A DNA stretch of 42,918 nucleotides from assembly GCA_007125585.1 (NCBI GenBank), contig SLCY01000038.1, positions 1 to 42,918 on the forward strand, given 5' to 3'. Of this stretch, positions 21,005-42,857 are shown piece after piece. The notes beneath the pieces are model-generated. The model was not told the origin of the DNA, did no database searches, and saw only the letters and a program-made list of their open reading frames with translations. Within the stretch, counting starts at the first letter, position 1, and each line of letters begins with the position of its first letter. The position numbers and the translations under genes are program-made. The stretch comes from Bacteroidales bacterium (lineage in GTDB: Bacteria > Bacteroidota > Bacteroidia > Bacteroidales > UBA7960).

Positions 21005-21050
21005 CAAATATACATGAATATTTTTCGTTCGAAATTACACACAGACACAC
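21005..21050. repeat. Interspersed repeat module alpha, copy B (degenerate stem, conserved loop)
   Basis: CAAATATACATGAATATTTTTCGTTCGAAATTACACACAGACACAC; compare 41085-41137 and 41226-41278. Confidence 0.85.
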
Positions 21051-21057
21051 AAAAGCC

Positions 21058-31639: not shown

Positions 31640-31675
31640 TCTCAAGGTCTTTCACCCGACCGTTGCTTGTTTATT
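31640..31675. repeat. Interspersed repeat module beta, copy 2
   Basis: tctcaaggtctttcacccgaccgttgcttgtttatt; compare 21058-21093. Confidence 0.85.
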
Positions 31676-31712
31676 GATCTGGTTTTTTCCATTGTATTTT
31701 TTTTTGACGTAT

Positions 31713-31798
31713 CATCAGTCATTGTGGCCTGCTTGCAGATGGCCTCCCCCTGCTGAAGTGGCCTTGATTTTTTAACGCAGATCCATCAAATGCGGGTT
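31713..31798. repeat. Interspersed repeat module epsilon, copy 2
   Basis: CTGCTTGCAGATGGCCTCCCCCTGCTGAAGTGGCCTTG...CGCAGATCCATCAAATGCGGGTTT; compare 7650-7732. A partial third piece (tttacaggaaaatcaatcaaatgtggatttg) lies at about 31842-31872. Confidence 0.85.
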
Positions 31799-31982
31799 TA
31801 TTCGCCGCTCAGGCATATTCAATGATGGGTTTGCGGATGCTTTACAGGAAAATCAATCAAATGTGGATTTGTCTTCTTCACAGGCCCGGTCAGATACAAC
31901 ATTTTTCATTGCAGGTGCGCCGCGGCCGGGTTTATGGGTAAAGACACAGGTGAGGGGAAGCGGGGTTTCTCAACCACAGCAG

Positions 31983-38033: not shown

Positions 38034-41000
38034 TCATTGATTTAGCATCGTGGATGTGGTAAAATGCTCGAGTGTTGTGGAATAGTATATGGCATCGTAA
38101 ATGGCCTGGTGGATCTCTGTGCGGATATTCATCTCTATCAGCTTATTGTTATCCTGATCGGGATAAGTGCGGTTTGACAGGAAGACATATACGAGGTTCT
38201 CTACCGGGTCGGCCCATGCAAGGGTACCGGTAAATCCGCTGTGACCAAAGCTCAGGTGTGAAGCGCTTATGGCAGAGGGGCCGTTTTCAGTCTTGTCAGG
38301 CAGAGGCTTGTCGAACCCCAGCCCACGGCGATTATCGTTGTCCGGGAACTGCAACCTTGTAAACTCGTTGATGGTGTTTTGATCGAAAAACTGCTGGCCG
38401 CCATAACGGCCCTCATTCAGAAAAACATGCATCAGCACGGCCAGATCGGCGGCATTCGAGAAAAGGCCTGCATGTCCGCTGACGCCTCCCAGCATTGCCG
38501 CCGTCTGATCATGTACATGTCCGTGCACCACCTGTCGTCGCCATAATGTATCGTTCATGGCGGGGATGATTCGTCCCGGGTCGAACCGGTCAGCAGGCGT
38601 GAACCCCGTCGTGGATAAGCCCATGGGCCGGTAAAGGAAGTTATCAGCAAAAAGGTCAATGCGCTGGCCTGCGACCTCTTCTATGATCTCTGCCAGCAGG
38701 ATAAACCCCAGGTCGCTATACACGTATTCGTTGTTTTCAAGTAAATCAGACGCTGTGATCCGGTCAAAGATGGTGTCGCGGTAATGCTTGCCCAGAAAGA
38801 GATCTTTGGCCACCCTGACGGGGAACTCCTTTGTGGGTATGCTGTTATAAATGCCATCCAGGTACTCCCCATTTTCCATGGTTTCCAGATAAAAGGGGAT
38901 CCAGGGAGCGAGCCTTCCCTGGTGAGCCATCAATTCTCTGAGGGTGATCGCTTCCTTGTTTGTCCCTTCCAGCCAGGGCAGGTATGCTGACAGCGATTGG
39001 TCCATCTCCAGCAGGCCTTTATCGTACAGACGCATTATGGAGGCTGTGGTGGCTGCGATCTTGGTGATCGATGCCAGGTCGTAAATATCGGCAGCCGTTA
39101 CACGATAAAGGCTGTCGCAGGTATGGTGACCGAAGGCTTTGTTGTATATCATGATGCCATCTTTGATGATCGCGATCTGGCATCCCGGATAGGCGTTCTT
39201 TCGTATCCCCTGTTCTGCAATGCTGTCAATGGCTGCCAGTAACCCTGAACGGATCCCCGCTTCTTCGGCCATGCCGAATCGTATCCTGGCTGGCTCCGGG
39301 GTGACAATGCCATGGCCTGCCGGAAAATGTTTGCCGGCAGTGACAGGCAGCCTACCCCTGGTCTGAAGGCCCCCAAATATTGCTTGTGCAGCCGCTTCTT
39401 CATAGACCCGCCCCTCCTGGTAAGTGACCAGCACCGCCTCTGCATCCAGAATCCCATCACCAAAAAAATTAAGGCTGTAGGGATTGGCGAACAAACTAAG
39501 GATGACATCCTGGTCTTTTGCTATGGTATTGATAAGCCCAATCGTTTTGCCATTGATCCCGTAGTCTTTTGTTACATCAAAGTTGTTGTCATGAATGGAT
39601 ATGATCACCAGGTCGTAGGCTTTCAGCTTTCGTTTGATCTGGGTGGCGCGTTCAGGGGTATGATATTTGTCGATCCCATAGGTGGATACCGGTGAGTAAT
39701 TGCCAAGCATTTTATGGAATGTGTTTCCCGGATATTCACCGATGGAAAGAGCGGCAATACGGCGATGCGACAAACCGGTCAGGGGCACCAGGTTTTTTTC
39801 GTTCGACACCAGTGTTAATGAAGACGCCACCATGGCTTTGTTAAGAATTTTGGCACCGGTGCTGTTCAGCTCTTCCGTAAGGTTTTCCAACGGGGTGTAA
39901 CGGAAGTTGAAGAGTCCTGCCTTTTCCTTGTAATACAATATTTTCCTGCATTTGTTGTTGACCAGTTCTTCGGATATCGTTCCGTCAATTATTGCCTCTT
40001 TGATGGCATTGATGGCGGCAGGCACGTCTTCCGGAAGCAGCAGGATGTCATTGCCGGCCATCAGGGCGCGCAGTTCCAGCTCCCCGGAATCAAAAAAATC
40101 ACTTACGCCGCGCATGTCGAGTGCATCGGTGATCACGAGTCCCTGAAAACCCATCTCGATCTGCAGCAGCTTGGTCACTATGTTGTACGACAGGGTAGAT
40201 GCAAGCGCCGGCTCCGGCTCCAGCGAGGGCATCTCCAGATGGGCAACCATGACAGTGTGCAGGCCCTGGTCTATCAATTGCCGGAAAGGGTATAAGTGCA
40301 CGGAATCCAATTCCTCGAAAGATTGACTGAGCAGTGGCAGGGTATGGTGGGAGTCGGCATCGGTGTCACCGTGGCCGGGAAAGTGCTTTGCGCAGGCAAA
40401 AATGCCGGCGTCTTGCAGTCCATGCATATAGGCCAGCCCCTTGGCGGAAACGGCATATTGGTTTTCTCCAAAAGCCCTTTTATTGATCACAGGGTTGTCG
40501 GGGTTGTTGTTCACGTCCACCACAGGGGCAAAGTTGATGTGTACGCCCAGGCGTTTTAGCTGCCTGCCGACCTCCATCCCCATCTGATAGATCAGCTGGT
40601 CATCTTCAATGGCCCCCAATGCCATCTGCCGTGGAAAAGGCACAAGGCTGTCAAGGCGCATCGCCGGCCCCCATTCAGCATCCATGGCAACCAGCAAAGG
40701 GGTCTTCGCCTGACTCTGCATGCGATTGGTAAGCAGCACTTGCTGCCAGGGGCTGCCACTGAAAAAAGCGGCACCACCAATATTGTAATCTTTTACTTTG
40801 TGCACGATGCTGTCGTAGTAATGATCATCGCGGCCGGTATGGACACGTACCATCAATAGCTGGGCAATGCGCTCTTCCATACTGAGCGATGCAAATACCG
40901 AATCAACCCAGGGTGAGGAGTAATGGGGGTTCCCCTGGTGTAAGTTCCCGTCGCCGCCGGAAGGGTGCACACCGGAGGGAGAGATCAAAAAAAACAGAAA

Positions 41001-41042
41001 CAGTAAAATGAAGTGAATTGCAATCAGAAAAACCTTGCGCAT
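38034..41042 (-). CDS. Glycoside hydrolase family 3 (NagZ-like) fused to a C-terminal serine beta-lactamase-like domain
   Basis: N-terminal half: CAKHFPGHGDTDADSHHTLPLL and ALVITDALDMRGV-type motif (GLVITDALDMRGVSDFF). C-terminal half: YDLASITKIAATTASIM (SxxK), VYSDLGFILLAEI (YxN-like), GHSGFTGT (KTG-like). Confidence 0.92.
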   Translation of the reverse strand: MRKVFLIAIHFILLFLFFLISPSGVHPSGGDGNLHQGNPHYSSPWVDSVFASLSMEERIAQLLMVRVHTGRDDHYYDSIVHKVKDYNIGGAAFFSGSPWQQVLLTNRMQSQAKTPLLVAMDAEWGPAMRLDSLVPFPRQMALGAIEDDQLIYQMGMEVGRQLKRLGVHINFAPVVDVNNNPDNPVINKRAFGENQYAVSAKGLAYMHGLQDAGIFACAKHFPGHGDTDADSHHTLPLLSQSFEELDSVHLYPFRQLIDQGLHTVMVAHLEMPSLEPEPALASTLSYNIVTKLLQIEMGFQGLVITDALDMRGVSDFFDSGELELRALMAGNDILLLPEDVPAAINAIKEAIIDGTISEELVNNKCRKILYYKEKAGLFNFRYTPLENLTEELNSTGAKILNKAMVASSLTLVSNEKNLVPLTGLSHRRIAALSIGEYPGNTFHKMLGNYSPVSTYGIDKYHTPERATQIKRKLKAYDLVIISIHDNNFDVTKDYGINGKTIGLINTIAKDQDVILSLFANPYSLNFFGDGILDAEAVLVTYQEGRVYEEAAAQAIFGGLQTRGRLPVTAGKHFPAGHGIVTPEPARIRFGMAEEAGIRSGLLAAIDSIAEQGIRKNAYPGCQIAIIKDGIMIYNKAFGHHTCDSLYRVTAADIYDLASITKIAATTASIMRLYDKGLLEMDQSLSAYLPWLEGTNKEAITLRELMAHQGRLAPWIPFYLETMENGEYLDGIYNSIPTKEFPVRVAKDLFLGKHYRDTIFDRITASDLLENNEYVYSDLGFILLAEIIEEVAGQRIDLFADNFLYRPMGLSTTGFTPADRFDPGRIIPAMNDTLWRRQVVHGHVHDQTAAMLGGVSGHAGLFSNAADLAVLMHVFLNEGRYGGQQFFDQNTINEFTRLQFPDNDNRRGLGFDKPLPDKTENGPSAISASHLSFGHSGFTGTLAWADPVENLVYVFLSNRTYPDQDNNKLIEMNIRTEIHQAIYDAIYYSTTLEHFTTSTMLNQ

Positions 41043-41084: not shown

Positions 41085-41137
41085 CAAATATACATGAATT
41101 TTTTTCATTCGAAATTACACACAGACGAATGAAAAAA
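41085..41137. repeat. Repeat module alpha, copy C1: hairpin TTTTTTCATTCG-[AAATTACACACAGA]-CGAATGAAAAAA
   Basis: Perfect 12-bp stem (41100-41111 with 41126-41137), 14-nt loop. Confidence 0.9.
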
Positions 41138-41140
41138 GAT

Positions 41141-41222
41141 CATGTGAAAGCGAAGCGGTTCCTCCTGTACACCAGCATTTTGTATATTATTTTTTACAAA
41201 ATGGTGGTGTTTTTTTACAGGA
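41141..41222. repeat. Repeat module delta, copy C: nested palindrome
   Basis: TCCTGTA-CACCA-g-CATTTTGTA ... TACAAAATG-g-TGGTG-tttttt-TACAGGA (41163-41222). Confidence 0.88.
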
Positions 41223-41225
41223 GAA

Positions 41226-41278
41226 ATATACATGAATTTTTTTCATGTGAAATTACACACAGACACATGAAAAAAATT
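41226..41278. repeat. Repeat module alpha, copy C2: hairpin AATTTTTTTCATGTG-[AAATTACACACAGA]-CACATGAAAAAAATT
   Basis: Perfect 15-bp stem (41235-41249 with 41264-41278), 14-nt loop identical to C1. Confidence 0.92.
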
Positions 41279-41435
41279 AATCTTGCAATGATTGATTAAA
41301 GCGGTAAGATTGAGCTCGCCACCCTCCGGGTAAGTTAAATATCCGCGATTTAGATATGAGTGGCCCGGTCCATTACGTTTTTGCATATGCTGTACGAGCA
41401 AATGCCATAAACGCGGATGGTGTGTTGCCGGGAAG

Positions 41436-42767: not shown

Positions 42768-42779
42768 AACCTGTTTCAG

Positions 42780-42857
42780 GGTTAAGGTTGAGGTTGAGGT
42801 TGAGGTTGAGGTTGAGGTTGAGGTTGAGGTTGAGGTTGAGGTTGAGGTTGAGGTTAA
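42780..42857. repeat. Hexanucleotide tandem repeat GGTTAA-(GGTTGA)x11-GGTTAA
   Basis: Counted directly: 13 units of 6 nt, 78 bp, the 11 internal units identical. Confidence 0.97.

What the first reader, a model, noticed from the sequence alone, without database searches (positions are those of the whole stretch)
41085..41278. Two tandem hairpins with an identical 14-nt loop but covarying stems
C1 (stem CATTCG/CGAATG) and C2 (stem CATGTG/CACATG) both close perfectly on the same loop, AAATTACACACAGA. The stem changes are compensatory: both arms changed together while the loop stayed fixed. This suggests selection on a folded RNA or on cruciform ssDNA, rather than simple shared descent. The degenerate copies at 21005 and 31592 keep most of the loop but have lost pairing. 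The loop/stem pattern does not match an intergenic element I can name.
Basis: partly seen in the sequence, partly recalled or inferred. Interest (0 to 1): 0.62.

Follow-up and report, generated by a model that had tools for sequence, protein, structure and literature searches.

The report
Promoter-hugging hairpin repeat, probably mobile
The two hairpins are copies of a short DNA repeat found about 77 times in this bacterium, nearly always joined in one orientation to the promoter start-box of a neighbouring gene, so they look like the end of an unnamed mobile element that settles at promoters rather than an RNA gene.

Summary
The two hairpins are real: identical 14-nt loop, perfect different stems. 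They are two of about 77 copies in this 2.57 Mb soda-lake-type Bacteroidales genome. The repeat occurs in 9 of 21 genomes of its genus and none of 26 from other genera of the family. Between species the loop is mostly kept while stems change in a paired way along about 20 bp (CATTCG, CATGTG, CATGCG, CATTGG), so pairing is real. Within this genome the arms also re-assort: 21 of 69 copies mispair at the key position. A.C and G.T mispairs are equally frequent, which speaks against RNA. The hairpin is the left end of a modular, non-coding element whose right end is a second covarying hairpin (ending ACAGGAG). Its left edge abuts CAAANNTA, the reverse complement of the Bacteroidota -7 box TAnnTTTG, and the gene on that side points away from the element at 48 of 54 sites; the right side shows no bias. 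In relatives without the element the same box lies at a similar distance from the start codon. Best reading: a non-autonomous, hairpin-ended mobile repeat that inserts at, or rebuilds, promoters. No transposase was found, and target duplication was not supported.

The parts
41085..41092 (-). CAAATATA = TATATTTG on the - strand: sigma-A type -7 box of the leftward gene (38034-41042); the left edge of the element abuts it
   Evidence: TAnnTTTG is the Bacteroidota -7 consensus (PMC9723704, PMC7366714). The box lies at a similar distance from the start codon in orthologous sites without the full element.
41092..41145 (.). Left-end hairpin 1 (C1): arms 41092-41111 and 41126-41145, loop AAATTACACACAGA 41112-41125
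   Evidence: model R2 57.8 bits
41146..41161 (+). Conserved spacer GAAAGCGAAGCGGTTC of the type-a element
   Evidence: present in type-a copies of several species
41162..41223 (.). Right-end hairpin, CTCCTGTA...TACAGGAG; its outer stem also covaries between copies
   Evidence: 41 copies of the end motif in the genome; DNA z -7.9
41093..41223 (+). Complete type-a element, 131 bp
   Evidence: copies in G000, G013, G017, G009, G002
41224..41230 (.). AAATATA heptamer shared between the two tandem elements
41231..41281 (.). Left-end hairpin 2 (C2), stem CATGTG/CACATG, loop 41250-41263
   Evidence: 55.8 bits
41276..41398 (+). Module c: structured segment (AATCTT...AAGATT; GAGCTCGCCACC...) shared with full-length elements in relatives and with free repeats in other genera of the family; decayed here
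   Evidence: R1 match, E 1.3e-18
21005..21054 (+). Degenerate left end: exact loop, stem lost, type-b interior to the right, beside a leftward gene
   Evidence: 39.3 bits
31592..31637 (+). Variant left end on box CAAAGATA (left arm CATGACAATTTTCAATTGA), joined to a type-b right part
   Evidence: 13.6 bits
1060..1160 (-). Right-end relic with a differently paired stem, TTCCTGTA...TACAGGAA

Best explanation
The hairpins are the left end of a non-autonomous, non-coding mobile repeat (MITE-like, about 70-330 bp) specific to one genus of soda-lake-type Bacteroidales. The repeat has two palindromic ends and interchangeable interiors. SHOWN: dispersed high copy number; conserved ends; stems that covary between species; left edge abutting CAAANNTA, the reverse complement of the -7 box, with the neighbouring gene reading away; orthologous promoters in relatives having the box but not the full element. 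INFERRED: the element moves as DNA. A recombinase or transposase supplied in trans, or by the host, recognises the palindromic ends (as ssDNA hairpins, or as inverted half-sites in duplex DNA) and joins the left end to the AAANNTA core of a promoter. Because the -7 box is kept or rebuilt at the junction and the element supplies the sequence upstream of it, the gene is not silenced, so insertions at promoters persist.
For: Copy number: 77 left-end matches in this genome; 24, 14, 7, 5, 4, 3, 2, 2 in eight congeners; none in 26 genomes of other genera. Right end: 41 copies. Many copies lie at contig ends, as dispersed repeats do. Type-a elements are 92% identical within this genome and about 87% to other species, while the orthologous genes around the window site are about 66-81% identical. 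Orientation: the left gene points away in 54 of 60 copies (binomial p 1e-10; 48 of 54 after dropping six second copies of tandems); the right side is 23 to 20, p 0.76. At four sites compared with 3-5 orthologues each, a CAAANNTA box lies at a comparable distance from the start codon without the full element. Hairpin covariation at the left end and right end. Stems are 6/6 paired in 21 of 22 type-a copies but in about half of the type-b copies (read).
Against: No movement was observed and no autonomous partner was found. The flanking AAANNTA heptamers do not match each other better than shuffled pairs, so a locus-specific target duplication is not supported. Some promoters in different species share left ends, e.g. 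L201/L007 and L212/L001, which could be old inheritance. The left arm also occurs alone at promoters, and two of the 'empty' orthologues at the window site carry left-arm-like sequence, so part of the left end could be ordinary promoter sequence. Start codons are mechanical ORF starts, not mapped transcripts.
Confidence: 0.62

Rival explanations
1. The left end is a regulatory palindrome: a dimeric protein binds the two arms (six-base half-sites centred 20 bp apart, about two helical turns) upstream of the -7 box, and the repeat spread by recombination because it works as an operator or promoter.
For: Promoter position and orientation. Palindromic copies with outward -7-like boxes on both sides lie between divergent genes (L012, L078). 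Strand-symmetric mispairs fit duplex DNA.
Against: Covariation reaches the outer A/T-rich stem, 20 bp in all, farther than usual half-sites. The linked right-end hairpin and the burst of near-identical copies are not explained. Two arm types coexist in one genome.
Confidence: 0.17
2. A structured non-coding RNA is made from the element (hairpin, module c, right hairpin), and pairing is kept by selection on that RNA.
For: Stable folds; covarying module-c stem; covarying end hairpins.
Against: G.T and A.C mispairs are equally common, whereas RNA selection should favour G.U on one strand. No Rfam family matches. The hairpin lies upstream of the inferred start site of the adjoining gene. Type-b and solo copies lack module c.
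Confidence: 0.1
3. Paired stem changes come from quasi-palindrome correction (template switching within the palindrome) or gene conversion between copies, not from selection on folding.
For: Species-typical stem types suggest homogenisation, and chimeric arms show recombination between copies. The mechanism is established for long palindromes (own knowledge).
Against: Type-a copies are almost all paired while type-b copies in the same genome are not; a purely mutational process should repair both alike. The same stems recur at unrelated loci.
Confidence: 0.11

Closest known systems
BrickBuilt and related MITEs of Porphyromonas gingivalis (PMC4596501)
   Same: Multicopy, intergenic, modular, non-coding repeat of a Bacteroidota genome, with promoters reading outward.
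   Different: BrickBuilt has conventional terminal inverted repeats and a 23-nt minisatellite. Here the ends are two different hairpins, and the left end abuts the -7 box of the neighbouring gene in one orientation.
Correia elements (Neisseria)
   Same: Small transposase-less elements upstream of genes, carrying promoters (PMC10969869).
   Different: Correia elements have true terminal inverted repeats (own knowledge); here the two ends are unlike each other. Promoter activity is inferred here, not measured.
REP palindromes with RAYT (GTAG/CGTC families, PMC3733652)
   Same: Hairpin repeats whose subfamilies differ by complementary stem changes; single-strand DNA recognised by an IS200-like enzyme.
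   Different: No GTAG/CGTC tag was seen at the stem foot, the loop is a conserved 14-mer, and no Y1 transposase was found in this genome. Strict promoter placement is not a REP feature (own knowledge).
Left and right ends of IS200/IS605 transposons and their miniature derivatives
   Same: Two subterminal hairpins; insertion beside a short fixed motif would look similar.
   Different: No Y1_Tnp in G000, which has the most copies, nor in G017, G002 or G009.

Membership tests
MITE (miniature non-autonomous transposable element) | Short, non-coding, many dispersed copies with conserved ends | tested here: met
   77 left-end and 41 right-end matches; type-a elements 125-132 bp
MITE (miniature non-autonomous transposable element) | Terminal inverted repeats matching each other | tested here: not met
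   By inspection the left end (CATGAATTTTTTT) and the inverted right end (CTCCTGTAAAAAAA) are not clear inverted copies; each end is its own palindrome
MITE (miniature non-autonomous transposable element) | Target site duplication | tested here: inconclusive
   AAANNTA on both sides, but left and right copies match no better than shuffled pairs: own p = 1, relatives p = 0.18
MITE (miniature non-autonomous transposable element) | Autonomous parent element with the same ends | tested here: inconclusive
   No gene seen between a left and a right end in the loci read; genomes are fragmented and few transposase families were searched
REP / RAYT system | Y1 (HUH) RAYT enzyme in genomes with many copies | tested here: not met
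   PF01797 absent from G000; across the family it does not track copy number
REP / RAYT system | GTAG or CGTC tetranucleotide at the foot of the stem | tested here: not met
   Left end begins CATG/CATA after CAAANNTA, right end finishes ACAGGAG, by inspection
Structured RNA family (Rfam) | Match to a curated covariance model | tested here: not met
   No match at gathering thresholds in the window; at permissive threshold only sub-threshold matches, mostly to long microRNA-type hairpins
Structured RNA family (Rfam) | G.U wobble preferred over A.C on the transcribed strand | tested here: not met
   G.T 32 vs A.C 29 in G000; 15 vs 14 in relatives (counts summed)
Promoter-bearing element (Correia/BrickBuilt-like) | Measured promoter activity out of the element | not testable with these tools
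   Sequence gives a TAnnTTTG box at the edge only

The most novel reading that the evidence does not exclude
A class of transposase-less, hairpin-ended mobile DNA that uses the sigma-A -7 box (TAnnTTTG) itself as its insertion site, joining in one orientation so that the promoter is kept or rebuilt at the junction.
Probability: 0.25. Interest if true: 0.8.

Novelty: new variant of a known kind. Interest (0 to 1): 0.55.

Why it matters
Mobile DNA that lands at a promoter usually disrupts or adds to it. An element that repeatedly sits flush against the -7 box, in one orientation, without displacing the box would be a way to spread through a compact genome at low cost and to replace the upstream half of dozens of promoters at once. 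It would link promoter evolution in Bacteroidota to a mobile-element mechanism that can be tested in close strains. It also shows that covarying stems with a fixed loop, usually read as a sign of RNA, can belong to a DNA element.

Tried and rejected
RNA gene: Rfam at gathering and permissive thresholds gave nothing, and wobble symmetry speaks against it. RAYT/REP or IS200/605: Y1_Tnp absent here and uncorrelated with copy number. 7-bp target duplication: tested, not supported. Module c resembled group II intron domain V by eye; the bulge spacing does not fit and Rfam gave only a sub-threshold plastid group II intron match on the other strand, so it was dropped. A tandem array of GTGAACTCGCCACC in G005 proved to be an unrelated 240-bp tandem repeat, apparently coding. 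Viral contigs held no copy of AAATTACACACAGACGAATGA. Exact text search for the loop in papers found nothing. The full hairpin pattern gave no hit in genome contigs; a shorter one gave four stretches in three Bacteroidales/Bacteroidetes MAGs. G004:C213 carries a near-identical copy of a G000 locus (99.7% aa), possibly a contaminant contig, so it was not used as evidence.

Full report
WHAT IS THERE. The two hairpins are present exactly as described: C1 CATTCG-AAATTACACACAGA-CGAATG (loop 41112-41125) and C2 CATGTG-AAATTACACACAGA-CACATG (loop 41250-41263). Both fold far better than shuffled sequence as DNA and as RNA. Their stems are longer than six bases; in C1 the arms are 20 nt. The window is contig 115 of a 2.57 Mb genome in 120 contigs. 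In it the loop occurs 55 times exactly and 73 times with up to one mismatch, with none for the reversed control. A sequence-only model of the left end (R2) finds 77 places in this genome, 24 in G013, 14 in G017, 7 in G002, 5 in G009, 4 in G004, 3 in G003, 2 in G018 and 2 in G010, and none in the other 12 congeners or in 26 genomes of seven other genera of the family. Named relatives with the motif are Bacteroidales/Bacteroidetes MAGs whose isolate names (CSSed, T3Sed) look like the Siberian soda-lake sediment series (the habitat is inferred from names).

ARCHITECTURE. In type-a copies the hairpin is followed by TCATGTGAAAGCGAAGCGGTTC and a second hairpin, CTCCTGTACACCAGCATTTTGTA...TACAAAATGGTGGTG...ACAGGAG, then AAATATA. 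The window holds one complete type-a element (41093-41223, 131 bp) followed at once by a second left end (C2), itself followed by module c (41276-41398). Type-b copies have the same left end and often the same last 30 bases but another interior (TCTCAAGGTCTTTCACCCGGTCG...). Full-length copies with left end, module c and right end together occur in G018, G009 and G000. Module c without the left end is widespread in other genera of the family.

COVARIATION. On 24 copies from seven genomes, 94.2% of stem cells pair (88.5% after shuffling), 15 cells carry two-sided changes against 3.9, and all slid controls collapse. I chose those 24 copies by hand, which can favour paired ones; the larger set aligned with the sequence-only model is the fairer test. 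There, in relatives, the main variable pair is paired in 52 of 56 copies (37 expected if independent), but in this genome in 48 of 69 (37.9 expected); association in G000 Fisher p = 0.004. So coupling is strong between species and loose within this genome, where arms of the two types have been shuffled. Copies with a type-a right part are almost all paired (21 of 22 with six of six pairs), type-b copies in about half (read). The outer stem covaries (G-C to A-T in G000 and G013) and so does the right-end hairpin. The loop is highly conserved in G000 but varies in relatives, e.g. AAATTTCACACAGA in G013; part of the relative set was found by the exact loop, which inflates its conservation.

DNA OR RNA. 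A folded RNA should tolerate G.U on its own strand more than A.C. Summed over the six inner pairs, G.T and A.C cells are 32 and 29 in this genome, and 15 and 14 in relatives. That symmetry points to a DNA-level role or to no selection on RNA. No Rfam family matches.

PROMOTERS. The left edge abuts CAAANNTA; reverse-complemented it is TAnnTTTG, the sigma-A -7 box of Bacteroidota, placed at -12 to -5 (PMC9723704, PMC7366714). The pattern CAAANNTACATGA occurs 68 times in the genome with no control match; some occurrences are solo left arms without the hairpin. With mechanical ORF calls the gene on the left points away from the element in 54 of 60 copies (48 of 54 after dropping six second members of tandem pairs), while the right side is 23 to 20. 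At four sites (window 41085, window 31592, G017 L076, G000 L045) I read orthologous upstream regions in relatives: every one of those tabulated has a CAAANNTA box at a comparable distance from the start codon, without the full element. At the window site two of the three relatives keep left-arm-like sequence beside the box, so 'empty' is certain only for the rest of the element there.

MECHANISM. Near-identical copies at unrelated loci (92% within the genome) and conservation above that of neighbouring orthologous genes indicate recent spread or conversion. I infer DNA movement with recognition of palindromic ends and joining at the AAANNTA core. The flanking heptamers look like a duplication but match no better than shuffled pairs, so a shared recombination core or an element-borne heptamer is as likely as a target duplication. 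Selection alone, keeping only insertions that leave a working promoter, could also yield the promoter bias, but would less easily give the flush junction.

COMPARISON. It works most like promoter-bearing MITEs (Correia, BrickBuilt), and in its stem subfamilies like REPs. It fails the REP membership tests made here and one classical MITE criterion (matching terminal inverted repeats). I therefore call it a new variant of a known kind. The promoter-box targeting would be the new part if junction-level polymorphism confirms it.

Noticed in passing
window 41276-41398; L146-L165: Module c (ATCTGTTTATAATTTGATTAAATCGGTCAGATGGAGCTCGCCA...TGGCTCGGTTCAT) is itself a dispersed repeat, often in tandem, in several other genera of the family; its first stem covaries (ATCTG/CAGAT, ACGCTT/AAGCGT, ACTCT/AGAGT). 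No Rfam family.
   Followed up: partly
window 31640-31900; many G000 loci: Type-b interiors and a further repeat around GTACTTTTTCTTTGGCTCCCATCCAAAGAAAAAGCTACCAAAAAGAAAGATCACCGC are spread through the genome, with TTTAAGGG-like tandem repeats in some copies (e.g. L010).
   Followed up: no
window 42779-42855: Tandem GGTTGA repeat (ggttgaggttgaggttgag...) just upstream of the MatE-family gene; it matches many places in G006 and G010.
   Followed up: no
window 38034-41042, - strand: The gene next to the element encodes a 1002-aa protein joining a glycosyl hydrolase family 3 domain to a beta-lactamase-family domain.
   Followed up: no
G000:C9 (L004) and G004:C213 (L070): Nearly identical locus (99.7% aa) in two genomes whose other genes are about 68-81% identical in DNA: contamination or recent transfer.
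   Followed up: no
G005:C221 (L129): More than 12 tandem copies of a 240-bp, apparently coding unit, typical of a repetitive surface protein.
   Followed up: partly
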